Below are positions 2,724 to 64,000 of a DNA stretch of 64,000 bases, piece after piece (position 1 is the stretch's first letter; each line of letters starts with the position of its first letter). Under the pieces are notes generated by a model. That model ran no database searches, was not told the origin of the DNA, and saw only the letters and a program-made list of their open reading frames with translations. The translations under genes were made by a program, and so were the position numbers. This DNA is from Pseudomonas sp. 7SR1 (lineage in GTDB: Bacteria; Pseudomonadota; Gammaproteobacteria; Pseudomonadales; Pseudomonadaceae), in assembly GCF_900156465.1 (NCBI RefSeq), contig NZ_LT707064.1, forward strand, positions 6,026,202 through 6,090,201, written 5' to 3'.

Positions 2724-3662
2724 TCAGACGAACAACCAGTAGCCCAATGCCGTCAGCACCGCTACCGCCAGGACGGGTCGCATCACGCGGTAGGCCTTGG
2801 GATGCTGGCGCTTCCACTGCTTGACCCGGCCACTGATACCGTCGCTGAACGACTTGCTCCAGGCATAGGCCCGGTTGATACCGCCGACATGTTCGTCGTC
2901 CAGGTTCTGCGGCGCGGTGGCACGTCCCAGGAAGGCGCTGATGGTGCGGTTGAGGCGCGTCATCAGTTGGCTTTTCAGCGGCCGCTCGACATCACAGAAC
3001 AGGATCACGCGGGTCTGGGGTGTTTCATTCTTGACCCAATGCACATAGGTTTCGTCGAACATCACGTCTTCGCCATCGCGCCAGGCGTAGATCTGGCCGT
3101 CGACAAAGATCCGGCAATGTTCGGAGTTGGGTGTGGAAAGCCCCAGGTGGTAGCGCAGCGAGCCGGCAAACGGGTCGCGATGGGGATTCAAGTGGCTGTC
3201 ACCCGGAAGCAGGGCGAACATGGCGCCCCGGACGTTGGGAATGCGGTTGACCAATTCCACGGTCCTGGGGCACAGCTGCTCGGCCGACGGTAACGGCTTG
3301 TCGTACCACTTGAGGTAGAACCGCTTCCAGCCCTTCTTGAAGAACGAGCCGAAGCCGGCGTCGTTGTTCTTTTCGGCAGCCCGGATGTATCCCTCGTCGA
3401 ACAGGCGCATGGCCTCGTCGCGAATGACCTGCCAGTTGTCCTTGAGCACATCCAGTTCCGGGAACTTGCTGCGGTCCAGATAGGGTTTGGAAGGCACTCC
3501 GGAGAACAGGTACATCAAGGCATTGTAAGGGGCGAACAACGCCGAGTGGTTGACGAACTGGCGCAACACCGGCAGGCGTGCCCTGCCGCGCAGGTGCACA
3601 TAGAGGGTACTGCCTATGAACACCAGCAAGACCGACGCCTTGGCGACGAACGAAACGGTCAT
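2724..3662 (-). CDS. lpxO: LpxO-type lipid A hydroxylase (aspartyl/asparaginyl beta-hydroxylase family)
   Basis: The product is an Fe(II)/2-oxoglutarate dioxygenase of 312 residues. LpxO hydroxylates a secondary acyl chain of lipid A at the cytoplasmic face of the inner membrane. The sequence shows an N-terminal membrane anchor (VLLVFIGSTLYVHLRG), the metal site HRDPFAGSLRYHLGL with the distal His in YVHWVKN and a following Arg for 2-oxoglutarate, and a C-terminal hydrophobic tail (VLAVAVLTALGYWLFV). The ATG at 3662 has AAGGAG 7 nt upstream; a longer frame to 3722 has no such site. It lies downstream of cysK on the same strand but with a 240-nt gap, so it probably has its own promoter. Other acyl hydroxylase roles within the family remain possible. 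Confidence 0.8.
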   Translation of the reverse strand: MTVSFVAKASVLLVFIGSTLYVHLRGRARLPVLRQFVNHSALFAPYNALMYLFSGVPSKPYLDRSKFPELDVLKDNWQVIRDEAMRLFDEGYIRAAEKNNDAGFGSFFKKGWKRFYLKWYDKPLPSAEQLCPRTVELVNRIPNVRGAMFALLPGDSHLNPHRDPFAGSLRYHLGLSTPNSEHCRIFVDGQIYAWRDGEDVMFDETYVHWVKNETPQTRVILFCDVERPLKSQLMTRLNRTISAFLGRATAPQNLDDEHVGGINRAYAWSKSFSDGISGRVKQWKRQHPKAYRVMRPVLAVAVLTALGYWLFV

Positions 3663-3802
3663 TTTCAAACTCCTTGTCAAAAACTTAAGCGACGCCAATT
3701 GCCCGACGTAGCCGAAGGCCATAGTAAAGATTCATGGCCCGGGTAAAAACCGTCCGACGCAACATTCTCTGTTGAGTAAAACGCAATAAACCCTTCTAGC
3801 AT

Positions 3803-3827
3803 GCGTCAGCTGAACCAAGGCTGACGC
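3803..3827. repeat. 8-9-8 inverted repeat between cysK and lpxO
   Basis: GCGTCAGC (3803-3810) and GCTGACGC (3820-3827) are perfect inverted arms around a 9-nt spacer. On the minus strand it follows cysK and precedes lpxO. There is no immediate T-run, so it may be either a weak terminator of cysK or a protein-binding site in the lpxO promoter region. Confidence 0.45.
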
Positions 3828-3852
3828 CAGCAAACATTGTCCTCTGGTTCTC

Positions 3853-3878
3853 GCGGCGAGGGGATATCCCCTCGTCGC
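3853..3878. repeat. REP-like palindrome after cysK
   Basis: CGAGGGG-ATAT-CCCCTCG with flanking GCG/CGC forms a near-perfect hairpin just past the cysK stop. It belongs to the GGCGAGGGG repeat type seen again at 12344-12483, and could protect or end the cysK transcript. Confidence 0.6.
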
Positions 3879-3902
3879 CTCAGGCTTGCTTTCAACCCGA
3901 CG

Positions 3903-4877
3903 TCACTGCTGGGTCTCCTGTTCGGTGAACAGGTCGCTGAACAGCATGCTCGACAGGTACCGCTCGCCGGAATCCGGCAGGATCACCACCAGGGTCTTGC
4001 CCTGCATCTCCGGTTTTTCCGCCAGGCGCACAGCCACGGCCATCGCCGCGCCACAGGAGATGCCGCAGAGAATTCCCTCCTCCTGCATCAGTCGCAAAGC
4101 CATGGCCTTGGATTCGTCGTCGGTGACCCGCTCGACCTGGTCGACCATCGTCAGGTCGAGATTCTTCGGCACGAATCCCGCCCCGATTCCCTGGATCTTG
4201 TGGGGGCTTGGCTTGATTTCCTGGCCTGCCATCGCCTGGGTGATCACTGGCGAACTCTCGGGCTCCACCGCCACCGACAGGATCGGCTTGCCACAAGTGT
4301 TCTTGATATACCGTGAAACCCCGGTAATGGTTCCGCCGGTGCCCACGCCCGCGACCAACACATCCACTGCGCCATCGGTGTCGTTCCAGATTTCCGGGCC
4401 GGTGGTTTTTTCGTGGATGGCCGGGTTCGCCGGGTTATCGAACTGTTGGGGCATGAAATAGGTGTCGGGGTCGCTGGCGACGATTTGCGTGGCCTTCTCG
4501 ATGGCCCCTTTCATCCCCTTGGCCGGCTCGGTCAGCACCAGCTCGGCGCCAAGGGCCTTGAGCACCTTGCGTCGTTCGATGCTCATGGACGCCGGCATGG
4601 TCAGCATCAGCTTGTAACCACGGGCCGCAGCCACGAACGCCAGGCCGATGCCGGTGTTGCCCGAGGTGGGCTCGACAATGGTCATGCCCGGCTTGAGCCG
4701 GCCCGTGCTTTCCGCGTCCCAGATCATGTTCGCACCGATCCGGCACTTGACCGAATAGCCCGGGTTACGCCCTTCGATCTTGGCCAGGATGGTCACGCCC
4801 CGCGGGGCGATGCGGTTGATCTGCACCAATGGCGTATTGCCTATGGAATGGGCGTTATCAGCGTATATACGGCTCAT
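3903..4877 (-). CDS. cysK: cysteine synthase A (O-acetylserine sulfhydrylase)
   Basis: A cytoplasmic PLP enzyme of 324 residues that makes L-cysteine from O-acetylserine and sulfide. The PLP lysine is Lys44 in [14 protein letters not shown]. The substrate-binding [11 protein letters not shown] loop (about 71-81) and the glycine-rich [10 protein letters not shown] phosphate loop (about 178-187) are intact, and the C-terminal region has [10 protein letters not shown]. The ATG at 4877 has AAGGA 8 nt upstream; the longer frame to 4907 is not supported. Length and motifs favour CysK over CysM. It is divergent from the DUF748 gene at 5022. Confidence 0.93.
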
Positions 4878-14366: not shown

Positions 14367-14521
14367 GGCAAGGCAGGCAAATAGGCGCTTATAGTAACGG
14401 CTTTTCGCGCTTGAGGCTGCCCCGGCGTCTGCCCGGTGAGCTGTGTGGACAGTCCGACCGGCCAACAGAACTAATCGCACAGGTCACCTGTCCTTTTTCG
14501 TACAACGTTCGAGAGTCTTTC

Positions 14522-58550: not shown

Positions 58551-58788
58551 GGCGGCCTCCTGGACCGCGAATGGGCCGCATCAGCGACGCTGATGGGCGG
58601 CAGTCAACTATTGGGTGACTGACGATAAATCAGACAGTGAAATCGGAATCTGGTGCGACGCCGCAACAACTCGAAACATGTAGCTTTTTGCCTCATTGCG
58701 GTGCGCCCCGGCACCACAACCAAGCACTCATCAAGCGCTTCACAGCATCTTTCCAAGTCCGATCTCTCTGGCTCGGGCCTTTTGCCGA

Positions 58789-58807
58789 CTTGGCACGGCT
58801 CTCGCTT
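58789..58807 (+). promoter_or_regulatory. sigma-54 promoter of the guanidine operon
   Basis: TTGGCACGGCTCTCGCTT has GG at 58792-58793 and GC at 58804-58805 exactly 10 nt apart, the -24/-12 pattern, with one mismatch from TGGCACG-N4-TTGC. Transcription would start near 58817, about 50 nt before the riboswitch. The region 58551-58788 shows no ORF I trust. Confidence 0.7.
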
Positions 58808-58865
58808 AAACAATCCCCGTGCAGGAGTCATCACAGGTTCGCGGCACCACAATTTGCAATGGCTG

Positions 58866-58957
58866 ACTAGGGTTCCGGCTCGCCTCTGGCGAGTGGCTGG
58901 TCCGAGAGTTGGCGACCTCCAGTTGAGGTTACACGGCGGGAAAAAAGCCCGGGAGAC
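58866..58957 (+). promoter_or_regulatory. guanidine-I riboswitch (ykkC)
   Basis: The aptamer hallmarks occur in order: CTAGGGTTCCGGC (58868-58880), GGTCCGAGAG (58899-58908), ACACGGCGGGA (58931-58941), then an A-run and GCCCGGGAGA (58947-58956). Two variable stems lie between. Downstream, CTCC (58984-58987) could mask GGAG (59007-59010) at the ribosome site of the next gene. No terminator is seen, so control may be translational. Confidence 0.92.
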
Positions 58958-59017
58958 AAGCCACCGTTCACGGTGCCGCGTTGCTCCTGTCCGCCCTTGA
59001 TCAACTGGAGAACCCCC

Positions 59018-60085
59018 ATGTTCAAGCTTCGTCTGTCCTCTCTGCTTCTCGCCGCCTTCGCGGCCCTCGCCAGCCTTTCGTCCACCGCCGCGCAGAAAGA
59101 CCACTTCAGCGTTTGCTGGACCATCTATGCCGGCTGGATGCCTTGGGAATATGCCGGTAGCCAGGGCATCGTCGACAAATGGGCGAAGAAGTACGGCATC
59201 AAGATCGATGTCGTGCAGCTCAACGACTACGTCGAATCCATCAACCAGTACACCGCCGGTCAGTTCGATGGCTGCACCATGACGAACATGGATGCCCTGA
59301 CCATTCCCGCGGCCGGTGGCGTGGACAGCACCGCCCTGATCGTCAGTGACTTCTCCAACGGCAACGACGGCGTCGTCATCAAGGGCGAAGGCAAGAAAGT
59401 GACGGACCTCAAGGGCATGGACGTGAACCTGGTGGAGCTGTCGGTCTCGCACTACCTGTTGGCCCGGGCCCTGGACTCGGTTGGCCTGACCGAAAAAGAC
59501 CTGAAGGTCGTCAACACCTCCGACGCCGACATCTCCGCCGCGTTCAACACCGAACAGGTCAAGGCCATCACTACCTGGAACCCGATGCTCTCGGACATCA
59601 AGGCCCAGCCTGGGGTGAGCGAAGTGTTCAACTCCAGCCAGATCCCCGGCGAGATCATGGACATGATGGTGGTCAACACCCAGACCCTCCAGGACAACCC
59701 GGCCCTGGGCAAGGCATTGACCGGCGCCTGGTTCGAGGTGGTGGCGCTGATGAATGCGAAAAACGCAGCCAGCAAGGCGGCGCTGGAGCACATGGCGAAA
59801 GCCTCGGGCACCGACCTGGCGGGTTTCCAGGCGCAGCTGGACACCACCAGGCTGTTCGCCACGCCCCAGGAAGCGCTCGGCTTCGCCACCAGCGGGCAAC
59901 TGCCCGACACGCAGCGCAAGGTGGCGGACTTCTCGTTCCGCCACGGTCTGCTGGGCGAAGGCGCCAAGAACGCCGACGCGGTCGGCATGGCATTCGCCAA
60001 CGGCGTGATCCTTGGCGACAAGGCCAACCTCAAGCTGCGCTTCGATCCCACCTACGTACAGCTGGCCGCCGACGCCAAGCTGTAA
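59018..60085 (+). CDS. guanidine ABC transporter substrate-binding protein (NitT/TauT type)
   Basis: A periplasmic protein of 355 residues, with signal peptide MFKLRLSSLLLAAFAALASL followed by SSTAA. The mature part starts DHFSVCWTIYAGWMPWEYAGSQGIVDKWAKKYG, typical of binding proteins annotated with urea carboxylase clusters. YTAGQFDGCTMTNMDALTIPAAGGVDSTAL and VNLVELSVSHYLLARAL follow. ATG 59018 has CTGGAG 7 nt upstream. It directly follows a guanidine-I riboswitch, so guanidine is the probable ligand rather than urea or a taurine-like compound. Confidence 0.87.
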   Translation: MFKLRLSSLLLAAFAALASLSSTAAQKDHFSVCWTIYAGWMPWEYAGSQGIVDKWAKKYGIKIDVVQLNDYVESINQYTAGQFDGCTMTNMDALTIPAAGGVDSTALIVSDFSNGNDGVVIKGEGKKVTDLKGMDVNLVELSVSHYLLARALDSVGLTEKDLKVVNTSDADISAAFNTEQVKAITTWNPMLSDIKAQPGVSEVFNSSQIPGEIMDMMVVNTQTLQDNPALGKALTGAWFEVVALMNAKNAASKAALEHMAKASGTDLAGFQAQLDTTRLFATPQEALGFATSGQLPDTQRKVADFSFRHGLLGEGAKNADAVGMAFANGVILGDKANLKLRFDPTYVQLAADAKL

Positions 60086-60099
60086 CCGGAGGACCTGGC

Positions 60100-60915
60100 A
60101 TGCGCCTGATCAACCGCTACCCGGACCGCCCCAGCCGCTTGTTGCTGGTGATCCTGCCCTTCGCGCTGGTGTTGTTCGCCTATTTCACTGGCTCGGCCGA
60201 ACGGTTGACGGACAACCCCAACGACAAGCTGCTCCCCAGCGCGACACAGATGAGCGACGCGGTGAAACGCCTGGCTTTCACCGCCGATGCTCGCAGCGGC
60301 GATTACCTGCTCTGGCAGGACACCGCGTCGAGCCTGCGCCGGCTGGCCATCGGCCTGGGCATCAGTGCCCTGGCCGGGCTCTGCCTGGGGATCGCCGCCG
60401 GCACGCTGCCACTGCTGGGCGCGCCGCTGTCGCCCTTGCTCACCGTGGTCTCGATGGTGCCGCCGTTGGCCATCCTGCCGATCCTGTTCATTGTCTTCGG
60501 CCTTGGGGAGTTGTCGAAGGTGATGCTCATTGTCATCGGCGTCACACCATGCCTGGCCCGGGACCTGGAACAGCGCGCCCGGGAAATTCCCCGTGAACTG
60601 CTGATCAAGGCCCAGACCCTCGGTGCGTCCACCTGGACCCTGATCCTGCGCGTGGTCCTGCCACAGCTATTGCCGCGGCTGTTGATTTCCCTGCGGCTGA
60701 TGCTGGGTTCGGCCTGGCTGTTCCTGATCGCCGCCGAAGCCATCGCCTCCACCGATGGCCTGGGCTATCGGATTTTCCTCGTGCGTCGTTACCTGGCGAT
60801 GGACGTGATCCTGCCATACGTGGTGTGGATCACCTTGCTCGCCTGGCTGATGGACTGGGGTCTCAAGCGCCTGACTCGCCAAGCGTTCCCCTGGTATGAA
60901 GGGGCGAAGGCATGA
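60100..60915 (+). CDS. ABC transporter permease of the guanidine uptake system
   Basis: An inner-membrane permease of 271 residues. The first segment (LLLVILPFALVLFAYFTG) is followed by a soluble stretch and five more hydrophobic segments. The EAA coupling loop is around ELLIKAQTLGASTWTLILRVVLPQLLPRLLISL (about 167-199), binding the ATPase. Its last 4 nt overlap the ATPase start. It lies 14 nt after the binding-protein gene. Confidence 0.9.
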   Translation: MRLINRYPDRPSRLLLVILPFALVLFAYFTGSAERLTDNPNDKLLPSATQMSDAVKRLAFTADARSGDYLLWQDTASSLRRLAIGLGISALAGLCLGIAAGTLPLLGAPLSPLLTVVSMVPPLAILPILFIVFGLGELSKVMLIVIGVTPCLARDLEQRAREIPRELLIKAQTLGASTWTLILRVVLPQLLPRLLISLRLMLGSAWLFLIAAEAIASTDGLGYRIFLVRRYLAMDVILPYVVWITLLAWLMDWGLKRLTRQAFPWYEGAKA

Positions 60916-61700
60916 GCTTCATCACGGTGAACAATGTCTGGCAACAGTATGCCGATCAGGTGGTGCTCGAACGCTTGAACCTGAGTGTCGCCGAGGGCGA
61001 GTTCTGCACCCTGGTGGGCGCGTCGGGTTGCGGCAAATCGACCTTCCTCAGGTTATTGCTGGGCCAGGAACAGGCCAGTCGCGGACAGATCCTGCTGGAT
61101 GGCGAGCCCTTGGCGGGCGAGCCGGATGCCAGCCGGGGCGTGGTGTTCCAGCGCTATTCGGTATTCCCGCACCTGACGGCGCTGGACAATGTGGCCCTGG
61201 GCCTGGAGCTGCCACGCTCGCCGGTGCTGGGGCGTCTGTTCGGTAGCGCCAAGCGCCAGGCCCAGGAAGAAGCCGCGCGATTGCTGGACAAAGTCGGCCT
61301 CGGCCAGGCCCTGGATAAATACCCGGCGCAGCTCTCCGGCGGCATGCAGCAACGGCTGGCGATTGCCCAGGCGTTGATCATGCGACCGCGCGTCCTGCTC
61401 CTGGATGAACCCTTCGGCGCCCTCGATCCCGGCATTCGCAAAGACATGCATGCCCTGCTGCTGGCGCTTTGGCGCGAGACCCGCCTGACCGTGTTCATGG
61501 TCACCCACGACCTGTCCGAAGGTTTCAGCCTCGGCACGCGCCTGCTGGTATTCGACAAGGTGCGAGTCGACCCCCACGCCCCGGGCGCCTACGGCGCGCG
61601 CATCACCTACGACATCCCATTGAACAGCGATCGACGCACCGCCCATGCCGCCGTCGAGGCAGCGTCCGCCGGCCTGGCCGGTGCGTTGCGTATCGCTTGA
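60912..61700 (+). CDS. ABC transporter ATP-binding protein of the guanidine uptake system
   Basis: A cytoplasmic ATPase of 262 residues: Walker A GASGCGKST (about 36-44), Q-loop VVFQRYSVFP (about 76-85), signature LSGGMQQRLAIAQAL (about 139-153), Walker B VLLLDEPFGALD (about 158-169) and the switch His in MVTHDLSE. ATG 60912 overlaps the permease stop (ATGA). It powers import with the two preceding gene products. Confidence 0.93.
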   Translation: MSFITVNNVWQQYADQVVLERLNLSVAEGEFCTLVGASGCGKSTFLRLLLGQEQASRGQILLDGEPLAGEPDASRGVVFQRYSVFPHLTALDNVALGLELPRSPVLGRLFGSAKRQAQEEAARLLDKVGLGQALDKYPAQLSGGMQQRLAIAQALIMRPRVLLLDEPFGALDPGIRKDMHALLLALWRETRLTVFMVTHDLSEGFSLGTRLLVFDKVRVDPHAPGAYGARITYDIPLNSDRRTAHAAVEAASAGLAGALRIA

Positions 61701-61714
61701 AAAGGAGCTTTTAC

Positions 61715-62440
61715 ATGACCGATTCGATCCAACTGTTTCCACCCTTCGCCGAAGAACTGCTGCCCGGCGGCGGCCATCGCTCGTTCGTGCTCAAGCGTGG
61801 CCAGTTGCTGCGCCTGACCGATTTGCGCGGCGGGGCCAACGTGAGCATGACGCTGCTCAATGCCAACGAGAAAACCGAACGCCTGAACCTGCCGGACAGC
61901 CTCAAGTGCCAGCACACCGCCAAGCTCACCGCCGGTCATTGCCTGTACTCGGACATGGGTCGGGTGCTGGCGGCGATCACCGCTGACACCTGCGGCTGGA
62001 GCGACAGCCTGGGAGGCGTGCTCTGCGCCGAGGAAGTCGCCGAGAAATACGGCCAGGGTCGGTACCAGGAACTGCGCAACGGCTTCTTTCGCAACGGCAC
62101 CGACAACCTGCTGGTGGAACTGGGCAAATGGGGGCTGGGCCTGTCCGACCTGCTGATGACCCTCAACCTGTTCAGCCGTGTCGATGTCGACGAGGCCGGG
62201 CAGTTTCATTTCGTCGAGGGCAACTCCAGGGCTGGCGATTTCATCGAGCTGTACGCCCCGATGGACACCCTGGTGGTGCTGACCGCGTTGCAACACCCGA
62301 TGGACCCGAATCCGCAATACGCCCCGCAACCGGTCAAGCTCAGCTGGATGAATGCCAATGCCAGCGTCGCCGAGCACTGCCGTCATTCGCGCCCGGAAAA
62401 CCAGCGCGGCTTCATCAACACCGACCGCCTGTTCGCCTGA
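61715..62440 (+). CDS. urea carboxylase-associated protein 1 (DUF1989), carboxyguanidine deiminase subunit
   Basis: A cytoplasmic protein of 241 residues with a DUF1989 domain. The conserved core is GHCLYSDMGRVLAAITADTCGWSDSLGGVLCAEEV (about 69-103), with further conserved residues in GDFIELYAPMDTLVVLTALQHPMDPNPQY. In characterised guanidine pathways the two DUF1989 proteins form CgdAB, which removes ammonia from carboxyguanidine to give allophanate. ATG 61715 has AAGGAG upstream. I do not assign A or B with confidence. Confidence 0.87.
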   Translation: MTDSIQLFPPFAEELLPGGGHRSFVLKRGQLLRLTDLRGGANVSMTLLNANEKTERLNLPDSLKCQHTAKLTAGHCLYSDMGRVLAAITADTCGWSDSLGGVLCAEEVAEKYGQGRYQELRNGFFRNGTDNLLVELGKWGLGLSDLLMTLNLFSRVDVDEAGQFHFVEGNSRAGDFIELYAPMDTLVVLTALQHPMDPNPQYAPQPVKLSWMNANASVAEHCRHSRPENQRGFINTDRLFA

Positions 62441-62451
62441 GGATCGCAGAC

Positions 62452-63093
62452 ATGTCATTCGCCATCAGCACCGCACACAAGCAACCCGACACCGCCCTCT
62501 ATCGCGCCACGATTCCCGCCGGCGAACCCTGGCTGACAGAGGTCAAGGCGGGCCAGACCCTGCGCATTCTCGACCTGGAAGGCAACCAGGCAGTCGACAC
62601 GCTGTTCTACAGCCTGGCCAACCCCAAGGAACGCTATGACGTGCAACGCACCCTGCGCCGGCAGAACAATGTCTACCTGAGTACCGGCAGCGTGCTGTAT
62701 TCCAACCTCGGCCGTCCGATGCTGACCATCATCGAAGACACCTGCGGGCGCCACGACACCCTCGGCGGCGCTTGTGCCCAGGAAAGCAACACCGTGCGCT
62801 ACGCCCTGGAGAAGCGCTACATGCACAGCTGCCGGGACAACTATCTGCGGGCCTGTGCCCACGACGGTCGCCTGGGCAAGGGCGACATCGGCCCTAACAT
62901 CAACTTTTTCATGAACGTGCCGGTCACCGCCGACGGCGGCCTGAGCTTCGAAGATGGCATTTCGGCACCGGGCAAATACGTCGACCTGCGGGCGGAAATG
63001 GACGTGATCGTACTGATTTCCAACTGCCCGCAACTGAACAACCCGTGCAACGCCTACAACCCCACGCCTGCGGAGCTTTTGATATGGAACTGA
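62452..63093 (+). CDS. urea carboxylase-associated protein 2 (DUF1989), carboxyguanidine deiminase subunit
   Basis: The product has 213 residues, related to but shorter than the preceding protein and sharing the core TGSVLYSNLGRPMLTIIEDTCGRHDTLGGACAQESN (about 77-112). The final part has NINFFMNVPVTADGGLSFEDGISAPGKYVDLRAEMDVIVLISNCPQLNNPCNAYNPTP, the usual C-terminus of UAAP2. It is expected to form the CgdAB complex with its neighbour. It starts 11 nt after the first gene and its end overlaps a 25-codon ORF. Confidence 0.87.
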   Translation: MSFAISTAHKQPDTALYRATIPAGEPWLTEVKAGQTLRILDLEGNQAVDTLFYSLANPKERYDVQRTLRRQNNVYLSTGSVLYSNLGRPMLTIIEDTCGRHDTLGGACAQESNTVRYALEKRYMHSCRDNYLRACAHDGRLGKGDIGPNINFFMNVPVTADGGLSFEDGISAPGKYVDLRAEMDVIVLISNCPQLNNPCNAYNPTPAELLIWN

Positions 63094-63161
63094 AATTCGC
63101 GCGCCTGCGCCGTTGGCTGTTCATGCTGTGCCAGAGCCGTGCGGGGCAGTGCATCAAATAA
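63084..63161 (+). CDS. small ORF (25 aa) overlapping the UAAP2 stop
   Basis: An ATG at 63084 inside the last codons of the UAAP2 gene, with GGAG at 63072-63075 upstream, opens 25 codons: a basic start, MELKFARLRR, then a short hydrophobic stretch, WLFMLCQS, and a polar end. The overlap suggests translational coupling. It is too short for any family call and could be chance, but the good ribosome site makes translation plausible. Confidence 0.4.
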   Translation: MELKFARLRRWLFMLCQSRAGQCIK

Positions 63162-63172
63162 ACAGGATATTT

Positions 63173-63238
63173 ATGAAACACCACCCATCCCCTGGGGGAA
63201 TCTGGGCTTTGGTTTCGCTCACGGGGACGACCCCGTAG
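63173..63238 (+). CDS. 21-codon leader ORF running into the guanidine-II riboswitch
   Basis: An ATG at 63173, after AGGA (63164-63167), opens 21 codons (MKHHPSPGGIWALVSLTGTTP) whose stop TAG (63236-63238) lies at the 3' edge of the first riboswitch hairpin. A ribosome finishing this ORF would unfold that hairpin, so translation and ligand sensing could interfere. No homology is claimed. Confidence 0.35.
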   Translation: MKHHPSPGGIWALVSLTGTTP

Positions 63239-63268
63239 GCCATCGACAACTGCGGGACGGCCCGCATC
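63219..63268 (+). promoter_or_regulatory. guanidine-II riboswitch (mini-ykkC)
   Basis: Two hairpins with the diagnostic ACGR loops: ACGGGG-ACGA-CCCCGT (63221-63236) and TGCGGG-ACGG-CCCGCA (63251-63266), each a perfect 6-bp stem, joined by a 14-nt linker. Next comes CAGGCA/TGCCTG (63275-63292), then the GAGGGGG ribosome site (63293-63299) of the carboxylase gene. The CCCC of the first hairpin could pair with that site when guanidine is absent. Confidence 0.88.
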
Positions 63269-63306
63269 CCGGTTCAGGCAGCACCCATGCCTGAGGGGGC
63301 AATGCC

Positions 63307-64000
63307 ATGTTCGAAAAAATCCTCATCGCCAACCGTGGCGCCATCGCCTGCCGCATCCTGCGTACCTTGCACCAGATGCAGGTCAAGGGCGTCGCGGTGT
63401 ACTCCCAAGCCGACGCCGCCAGCCTGCACATCCTCCAGGCCGATGAAGCCCATTGCCTGGGCGACGGCGCCGCGGCCGGCACCTACCTGGCGCTGGACAA
63501 ACTCCTGGAAGTCGCCCGAAGCAGCGGTGCGACGGCGATTCATCCCGGCTACGGTTTTCTCTCGGAGAACGCCGCTTTCGCCGAAGCCTGCGAGGCCGCC
63601 GGCATTGCCTTCATCGGCCCGACGCCGGAGCAACTGCGGGTGTTCGGCCTCAAGCACACCGCTCGCGCCCTGGCCCGACAGCACGACGTGCCGTTGCTCG
63701 AAGGCACCGAGCTGCTCGACAGTGTCGAGGCGGCACTGCTGGCCGGCGCCCAAGTCGGCTATCCGGTGATGCTGAAAAGCACGGCGGGCGGCGGCGGCAT
63801 CGGCATGCGGGTGTGCCGCAGCGCCACCGAGTTGAGCGAATCCTTCGAAGCGGTCAAGCGCCTCGGGCAGAACAATTTCAGCGACGCCGGTGTGTTCATC
63901 GAGAAGTACATCGAACGGGCCCGGCACCTTGAGGTTCAAGTGTTCGGCGACGGCCAGGGCCAGGTGCTCGCCCTGGGGGTGCGCGACTGCTCGGTACAAC
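63307..64000 (+). CDS. guanidine/urea carboxylase, biotin carboxylase domain (partial)
   Basis: The first 231 codons of a large biotin-dependent carboxylase; the rest is beyond the window. MFEKILIANRGAIACRILRTL opens the biotin carboxylase domain, with AIHPGYGFLSENAAFAEAC (about 78-96) and the ATP-grasp loop KSTAGGGGIGMRVCRS (about 158-173). The family includes urea carboxylase and guanidine carboxylase, which are told apart by residues in the C-terminal transferase domain that cannot be seen here. The two guanidine riboswitches favour guanidine carboxylase. ATG 63307 has GAGGGGG 7 nt upstream. Confidence 0.9.
   Translation, partial: MFEKILIANRGAIACRILRTLHQMQVKGVAVYSQADAASLHILQADEAHCLGDGAAAGTYLALDKLLEVARSSGATAIHPGYGFLSENAAFAEACEAAGIAFIGPTPEQLRVFGLKHTARALARQHDVPLLEGTELLDSVEAALLAGAQVGYPVMLKSTAGGGGIGMRVCRSATELSESFEAVKRLGQNNFSDAGVFIEKYIERARHLEVQVFGDGQGQVLALGVRDCSVQ

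What the first reader, a model, noticed from the sequence alone, without database searches (positions are those of the whole stretch)
63219..63268. A guanidine-II riboswitch inside an operon that already starts with a guanidine-I riboswitch
Seen: two perfect hairpins with ACGA and ACGG loops immediately before the carboxylase start, 4.3 kb downstream of a clear ykkC aptamer in the same run of same-strand genes. Established: ykkC (class I) and mini-ykkC (class II) both bind guanidine but are structurally unrelated. Inference: the cell senses guanidine twice, gating uptake and CgdAB with one aptamer and the costly biotin carboxylase with the other, perhaps at different concentrations. I do not know of this nested two-class arrangement being described.
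Basis: partly seen in the sequence, partly recalled or inferred. Interest (0 to 1): 0.82.

Follow-up and report, generated by a model that had tools for sequence, protein, structure and literature searches.

The report
Two guanidine riboswitches in one operon
A Pseudomonas genome carries two structurally unrelated guanidine-sensing RNA switches in one guanidine-degrading operon; the arrangement is real, conserved and already in print, while the way the first switch appears to hide the ribosome site was not found described in the papers that could be searched.

Summary
Rfam finds guanidine-I at 58856-58957 (95.2 bits, cut-off 63) and guanidine-II at 63219-63265 (41.1 bits, cut-off 32), 4.26 kb apart on one strand, before the ABC importer and before gca. 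It is not peculiar to this genome: 81 of 81 cgdB loci examined (window plus the 80 kept of 589 relatives) have the pair, as do 76 of 80 guanidine-I-bearing genomes of the genus. It is already described: a 2025 paper reports it for Vreelandella boliviensis, 'like in several other bacteria', with in-line probing of both RNAs (PMC12508155). What may be new is mechanism. The guanidine-I leader shows no intrinsic terminator. Instead aptamer hairpin P2 (58917-58926) is a perfect 10-nt complement of the first gene's Shine-Dalgarno region (59001-59010), with compensatory changes in relatives and dominant predicted pairing in 73 of 80 leaders (shuffle control in 55). Both switches would then act on translation, each on its own gene. 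In passing: a probable conserved 25-codon micro-ORF overlaps the cgdB stop. No ligand binding was tested here.

The parts
58856..58957 (+). Guanidine-I (ykkC) riboswitch aptamer
   Evidence: RF00442, 95.2 bits, cut-off 63
58915..58929 (+). P2 hairpin of the guanidine-I aptamer; 58917-58926 (CUCCAGUUGA) is the proposed anti-Shine-Dalgarno strand
   Evidence: perfect 10-nt complement of 59001-59010; 9 of the 10 pairs are in the minimum-energy fold; predicted pairing probability 0.93 without ligand
58950..58989 (+). Terminator-like stem without U-tract: 58950-58955 (CGGGAG) with 58984-58989 (CUCCUG); anti-aptamer stem of the proposed OFF state
   Evidence: minimum-energy fold; no + strand terminator found
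59001..59010 (+). Shine-Dalgarno region of the first gene (UCAACUGGAG), partner of 58917-58926
59018..60085 (+). ABC transporter substrate-binding protein (probable guanidine importer)
   Evidence: TIGR03427, 579.2 bits, cut-off 333.9
60100..60915 (+). ABC transporter permease
   Evidence: NCBIfam permease models, all 13 below their cut-offs
60912..61700 (+). ABC transporter ATP-binding protein
   Evidence: NCBIfam ATPase models, the 25 shown all below their cut-offs
61715..62440 (+). cgdA-like gene (UAAP1, DUF1989)
   Evidence: TIGR03425, 326.5 bits, cut-off 205.95; PF09347
62452..63093 (+). cgdB-like gene (UAAP2, DUF1989)
   Evidence: TIGR03424, 339.8 bits, cut-off 284.7; PF09347
63084..63161 (+). 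Conserved micro-ORF, 25 aa, start overlaps the cgdB stop
   Evidence: no NCBIfam (E up to 0.001) or Pfam (E up to 1) family
63219..63265 (+). Guanidine-II (mini-ykkC) riboswitch aptamer; hairpins 63221-63236 (ACGA) and 63251-63266 (ACGG)
   Evidence: RF01068, 41.1 bits, cut-off 32; fold
63268..63299 (+). Hairpin P3 holding most of the gca Shine-Dalgarno (GAGGGGG, 63293-63299)
   Evidence: 63268-63270 with 63295-63297 and 63274-63280 with 63288-63294; the site paired to the bases after P2 in 51 of 60 Pseudomonas-type loci
63307..64000 (+). gca (guanidine/urea carboxylase), 5' 231 codons; read as continuing at base 1 of the contig (L004:3-2948), allophanate hydrolase after it
   Evidence: TIGR02712 394.5 bits for this part (profile 1-230) and 1478.8 bits for L004:3-2945 (profile 232-1201); TIGR02713 788.7 bits

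Best explanation
A guanidine-import-and-degradation operon with two independent guanidine ON switches, both acting at translation start. Without guanidine, the guanidine-I RNA folds so that aptamer strand 58917-58926 (5' side and loop of P2) pairs with the Shine-Dalgarno region 59001-59010 of the binding-protein gene, while 58950-58955 pairs with 58984-58989; guanidine binding stabilises P2 and the aptamer core and frees the ribosome site. 4.3 kb on, guanidine-II does the same kind of job for gca, whose Shine-Dalgarno lies in a hairpin right after the aptamer. A second switch is useful because the first controls only the first ribosome site, and gca is separated from upstream translation by 145 bases after the micro-ORF. 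Shown: both aptamers, their order and conservation, the covarying P2:Shine-Dalgarno complement, no intrinsic terminator. Inferred: ligand binding here, direction of switching, effect on expression, the reason for two switches.
For: Aptamers. Arrangement in 81 of 81 cgdB loci; of the 80 relatives 30 were given to the Rfam model, which finds the operon guanidine-II in 30 of 30, 29 above cut-off; 76 of 80 gI-bearing genomes of the genus. No + strand terminator after guanidine-I in the window. 10-nt P2:Shine-Dalgarno complement in the window; U-A to A-U change in a second Pseudomonas group, G-C to A-U in L029, and a different loop with a matching site at the extra guanidine-I of L112. Mean longest complement 8.24 against 6.86 with partners shuffled, maximum of 500 shuffles 7.31; paired fraction at five variable positions 0.652 against 0.493, 0 of 2000 shuffles reach it. 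Unliganded pairing above 0.5 in 73 of 80 leaders. In 55 of 78 distinct leaders (those whose P2 begins ACCUCCA) the mean is 0.918 native, 0.11 with P2 loop shuffled, 0.148 with Shine-Dalgarno flank shuffled. Predicted cost of forcing P2 is 3.3 kcal/mol in the window. In G418 gca lies 22 nt after cgdB and no guanidine-II was found. In Vreelandella both RNAs bind guanidine.
Against: The authors of PMC12508155 presume a transcriptional mechanism for guanidine-I, and a review calls that usual. The window leader as a whole is not more stable than shuffles (z -0.95), nor clearly the guanidine-II region (z -1.44). In one search the core pairs were fixed by how rows were anchored, and shuffling ignores relatedness. 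In the L112-L115 group and in Burkholderiales the complement is short (mostly 5-7 nt, 8 in L080). L072, L087, L088, L095, L105 and L106 are predicted to keep P2 intact and L073 is mixed. Outside these groups the complement is weak or absent. P1, P2 and the Shine-Dalgarno hairpin of guanidine-II fold together in the window, so how guanidine would open that hairpin is unexplained; its pairing is only modestly above the composition control (51 of 60, against 0.51). 19 Burkholderiales gca genes show no clear Shine-Dalgarno.
Confidence: 0.66

Rival explanations
1. Guanidine-I controls transcription of the whole operon (by a terminator or Rho), and guanidine-II adds a translational checkpoint on gca; the P2:Shine-Dalgarno complement is a minor extra.
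For: Presumed for Vreelandella and usual for the class by review. The 58950-58955/58984-58989 stem sits where a terminator would, and a stem of that form followed by TTTTTT stands after a guanidine-I copy before a cgdA-like gene in G353 (L149, read by eye). In L066, L073, L097 and L108 a run of five or more T begins several bases after the CUCC strand.
Against: No + strand terminator at 58700-59100. Of 80 leaders parsed (L116 not), 8 have a run of five or more T in the 200 bases scanned; two of these lie beyond the start codon and, by eye, none directly follows the stem. Covariation and shuffle controls favour P2:Shine-Dalgarno pairing. Rho cannot be tested here.
Confidence: 0.24
2. Guanidine-II broadens what the operon answers to: like the Vreelandella copy it would also accept methylguanidine, so that gca can be raised by a second ligand.
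For: Vreelandella class II bound guanidine (93 uM) and methylguanidine (83 uM) alike, class I only guanidine.
Against: There is no room for mgdH/mgdL between gca and allophanate hydrolase here (L004 ORFs 3-2948 and 2887-4749 overlap). Not exclusive of the main reading.
Confidence: 0.2
3. Guanidine-II here is a relic without effect on gca.
For: Loops are ACGA/ACGG; PMC9300104 speaks of reduced activity of variants with an ACGG loop (passage). Burkholderiales copies precede a gca without a clear Shine-Dalgarno.
Against: Two hairpins with ACGR loops in 81 of 81 loci, loop spacing 28-36, although REP-like repeats lie in the same gap in many (by eye).
Confidence: 0.07

Closest known systems
Guanidine carboxylase operon of Vreelandella boliviensis (PMC12508155)
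   Same: guanidine-I in the 5' leader, guanidine-II between cgdB and gca; ABC importer, cgdAB, carboxylase and allophanate hydrolase in the operon
   Different: mgdH and mgdL lie between gca and atzF there, no room for them here; guanidine-I presumed transcriptional there, looks translational here
Guanidine-II riboswitch before sugE/gdx (also at C1:3148043 of this genome)
   Same: two ACGA hairpins just before a start codon
   Different: stands before a single exporter-like gene, not an inner gene of an operon
Guanidine-I operons without guanidine-II (G418 in the class sample)
   Same: guanidine-I and a cgdB orthologue
   Different: gca begins 22 nt after cgdB and no guanidine-II was found

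Membership tests
Guanidine-II riboswitch (RF01068) | covariance-model score above the curated cut-off | tested here: met
   41.1 against 32 bits
Guanidine-II riboswitch (RF01068) | two GC-rich hairpins with ACGR loops | tested here: met
   63221-63236 ACGA, 63251-63266 ACGG
Guanidine-II riboswitch (RF01068) | lies directly before a guanidine-related gene | tested here: met
   41 bases between the match and the gca start
Guanidine-II riboswitch (RF01068) | binds guanidine and changes translation | not testable with these tools
   needs in-line probing and reporters
Guanidine-I riboswitch (RF00442) | covariance-model score above the curated cut-off | tested here: met
   95.2 against 63 bits, full model 1-107
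Guanidine-I riboswitch (RF00442) | binding-pocket residues of subtype 1 rather than of the PRPP/ppGpp subtypes | not tested
   only the Rfam score and gene context point to subtype 1
Guanidine-I riboswitch (RF00442) | intrinsic terminator as expression platform (usual, not obligatory) | tested here: not met
   none on the + strand at 58700-59100
Guanidine carboxylase pathway operon | ABC importer, cgdA, cgdB, carboxylase, allophanate hydrolase in one run | tested here: met
   NCBIfam matches (permease and ATPase below cut-offs); gca and allophanate hydrolase continue from contig base 1
Guanidine carboxylase (as against urea carboxylase) | substrate preference for guanidine | not tested
   the model matched is named urea carboxylase (TIGR02712); assignment rests on cgdAB and riboswitch context

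The most novel reading that the evidence does not exclude
The guanidine-I aptamer of this operon family carries its own expression platform: hairpin P2 doubles as anti-Shine-Dalgarno, so the ribosome site of the first gene is the strand that unfolds the aptamer. With guanidine-II on gca this gives one mRNA with two separate translational guanidine gates of unrelated structure, kept from Pseudomonas to Burkholderiales, with a conserved 25-residue peptide encoded between cgdB and the second gate in many of them.
Probability: 0.53. Interest if true: 0.55.

Novelty: new member of a known kind. Interest (0 to 1): 0.42.

Why it matters
The two-class arrangement is known, but its breadth shows it is the usual design of this operon in Pseudomonas and relatives, not a curiosity. 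If guanidine-I acts on translation through P2, the reason for the second switch is simple (each gate reaches only its own ribosome site), and the question left open by the Vreelandella authors, control by two riboswitch types with different specificities on transcription and translation, becomes testable with two short reporter series.

Tried and rejected
Upstream ORF 63173-63238 (21 codons, stop at the end of the first guanidine-II hairpin): rejected as a conserved leader peptide, since by eye the same stretch in the relatives is different sequence, often REP-like repeats; no formal test was made. Intrinsic terminator after guanidine-I: not found in the window. A Shine-Dalgarno hairpin as proof of the guanidine-II mechanism: 51 of 60 against 0.51 in shuffles, so used as a weak point. 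Folds constrained to hairpins P1 and P2: P1 was misplaced for the window and several loci (0-2 bp), so the constrained results were dropped and only the unconstrained ones used. Extra ACGR hits about 2.7 kb after guanidine-II fall by position inside gca; not taken as aptamers. Micro-ORF without a motif filter: weak codon-position signal (0.509, 0.454, 0.570 in 61 Pseudomonas-type rows; 0.493, 0.426, 0.564 in 20 Burkholderiales rows).

Rows dropped: L107 had no gca start found by the script and is missing; L116 had no hairpin under the strict rule but passes the looser one. In one search L078 was not parsed and L082, L086, L104 and L116 were parsed wrongly; the start codon was misread for several loci (L007-L010, L012, L021, L027, L028), mended; L078 was not parsed. 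The 80 genomes were taken from the top of the guanidine-I list, own genome left out, not at random.

Literature: nine searches in an open-licence PMC library. Six look-ups of 2017-2021 guanidine papers failed as not held (the id was recalled and may be wrong), so an earlier description of P2:Shine-Dalgarno pairing or of the micro-ORF cannot be excluded; neither showed up in those searches. PMC12508155 was read in section 6 and passages; PMC12186494, PMC7266159, PMC11410670, PMC13296017, PMC9788540, PMC7736828, PMC7544219, PMC9300104, PMC9800807 and PMC11647477 in passages only.

Full report
Observation. The Rfam search of the window gives guanidine-I at 58856-58957 (95.2 bits) and guanidine-II at 63219-63265 (41.1 bits), both above their cut-offs and on the + strand. 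Between them lie genes for an ABC importer and two DUF1989 proteins that match UAAP1 and UAAP2 (cgdA, cgdB); after guanidine-II comes the carboxylase gene, whose 3' part and an allophanate hydrolase gene are found at the start of the same contig. The window is the end of a single 6.09 Mb contig. The own-genome searches list one guanidine-I and two guanidine-II matches; the second guanidine-II stands before a sugE/gdx-like gene.

Breadth. With the window, 81 of 81 have guanidine-I 3.3-5.2 kb upstream (by its conserved core) and a pair of ACGN hairpins before gca: loops ACGA/ACGG in 57, ACGG/ACGG in 15, ACGA/ACGA in 8, ACGG/ACGA in 1. Of the 80 I gave 30 to the Rfam model; it found the operon guanidine-II in 30 of 30, 29 above the cut-off, L072 just below. 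In the genus sample 163 of 298 genomes have guanidine-I; of these I gave 80 to the guanidine-II search and 76 of 80 have it 2.7-5.9 kb downstream on the same strand. Of the other four, G151, G223 (73% complete) and G232 have the two on different contigs, and G058 has no close cgdB. In a class sample 16 of 185 genomes have guanidine-I, the own genome included. Of the other 15, 11 have a cgdB orthologue (63-71% identity). In 7 of these 11 guanidine-II follows cgdB within 26-279 bases: G434, G346, G465, G511, G498, G370 (guanidine-I on another contig) and G328 (25.3 bits, below the cut-off). G384 has a degenerate hairpin pair seen by eye only; in G446 guanidine-II lies before cgdB instead; G353 has its only match on another contig although the cgdB contig runs on; G418 has gca 22 nt after cgdB and no guanidine-II. 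So the pair is common but not obligatory.

Prior art. PMC12508155 describes the same arrangement in Vreelandella boliviensis, 'like in several other bacteria', cites a 2017 paper for it (not held here), and reports apparent KDs of 44 uM (class I, guanidine), 93 uM (class II, guanidine) and 83 uM (class II, methylguanidine). A review says such operons are under guanidine-I or guanidine-II control (PMC12186494, passages). A Pseudomonas-lineage genome paper mentions guanidine-I only (PMC13296017, passages).

How the first switch may work. No terminator lies on the + strand after guanidine-I in the window. The minimum-energy fold of 58856-59040 pairs 58918-58926 of hairpin P2 with 59001-59009, 58870-58875 of the aptamer core with 59010-59015, and 58950-58955 with 58984-58989; as a whole that fold is no more stable than shuffles (z -0.95). 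The full complement is 10 nt, 58917-58926 with 59001-59010. It is 10 nt in the main Pseudomonas group, with the compensatory forms CUCCAGUAG/CUACUGGAG in a second group, CUCCAAUUGA/UCAAUUGGAG in L029, and GACCUCCAU/AUGGAGGUC at the additional guanidine-I of L112. Over 46 distinct pairs from 115 rows (one row missed) five variable positions are paired in 0.652, against 0.493 (sd 0.032) with partners shuffled, 0 of 2000 reaching it; the core pairs were fixed by the anchoring and say nothing. Partition-function folding gives pairing above 0.5 in 57 of 61 Pseudomonas-type and 16 of 19 Burkholderiales leaders (L078 not parsed), 0.93 in the window. In 55 of 78 distinct leaders, those whose P2 begins ACCUCCA, the mean is 0.918, falling to 0.11 with the P2 loop shuffled and 0.148 with the Shine-Dalgarno flank shuffled. 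Outside these groups the picture is mixed: a six-base match in G465, five in G498 and G328, four in G346, others lower or not parsed.

How the second switch may work. In Pseudomonas-type loci the gca Shine-Dalgarno pairs with the bases just after guanidine-II in 51 of 60 (0.51 in the composition control), and in the window it lies in hairpin P3 (region z -1.44). In L063, L067, L068 and L071 it merges with an extended, 10-bp second hairpin. In 19 Burkholderiales loci the duplex energy with the 16S tail has a median of +0.4 kcal/mol (lowest -3.3, L078), against a median of -6.0 in 60 Pseudomonas-type loci, although the distance from the second hairpin to the start codon is 19-20 nt in all 19. 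How docking of the two hairpins frees the site is not settled by folding.

Micro-ORF. In 37 of 80 rows the frame that starts in the last codons of cgdB (ATGGAACTGA or similar) encodes a peptide of the form M-E/G-L-x4-LR-x-W-LF-x2-CQ-x-R-x2-QC; 10 Burkholderiales rows encode a related MELKRIRNWLY-type peptide. In the 37, codon positions vary 0.217, 0.110 and 0.393, and the nonsynonymous to synonymous ratio is 0.08 of the neutral expectation, against 1.3 and 4.7 in the other frames; in the 10 it is 0.25. Rows were chosen by a peptide pattern, which biases this, and without the filter the signal is weak; the start codon is partly dictated by the end of cgdB. No family matches.

Verdict. Observation right, interpretation partly right, arrangement known. 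The added value is its breadth and a concrete, covariation-backed proposal that guanidine-I in this operon family controls translation through P2.

Noticed in passing
window 63084-63161 and the same place in L037-L116: Conserved 25-codon micro-ORF overlapping the cgdB stop, roughly MELKxxRLRRWLFALCQxRSGQCxK, in 37 of 80 rows by pattern (10 more with a Burkholderiales-type version); function unknown.
   Followed up: partly
L077-L082, L084, L085, L088, L089, L092, L093, L096, L098, L099, L102, L103, L105, L106: Burkholderiales gca genes have no clear Shine-Dalgarno, yet the second guanidine-II hairpin ends a constant 19-20 nt before the start codon (19 of 19).
   Followed up: no
many of L037-L072, between micro-ORF and guanidine-II: REP-like inverted repeats (GTGGGAGCGGGCTTGCTCGCGA type, named from recall) lie in the gap in many relatives; not seen in the window (by eye).
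   Followed up: no
L112-L115, about 1.4 kb before the main guanidine-I; G113, G147, G177, G248: A second or third guanidine-I aptamer in the same genome or neighbourhood; in L112-L115 its P2 is again complementary to its own Shine-Dalgarno region (9, 6, 8 and 7 nt).
   Followed up: partly
L116, about position 14459: A further guanidine-II about 6.8 kb after the operon one in an Oxalobacteraceae genome (39.5 bits).
   Followed up: no
L149 (G353): A guanidine-I copy before a cgdA-like gene with what reads by eye as a full terminator and U-tract, i.e. a transcriptional version in the same pathway.
   Followed up: no
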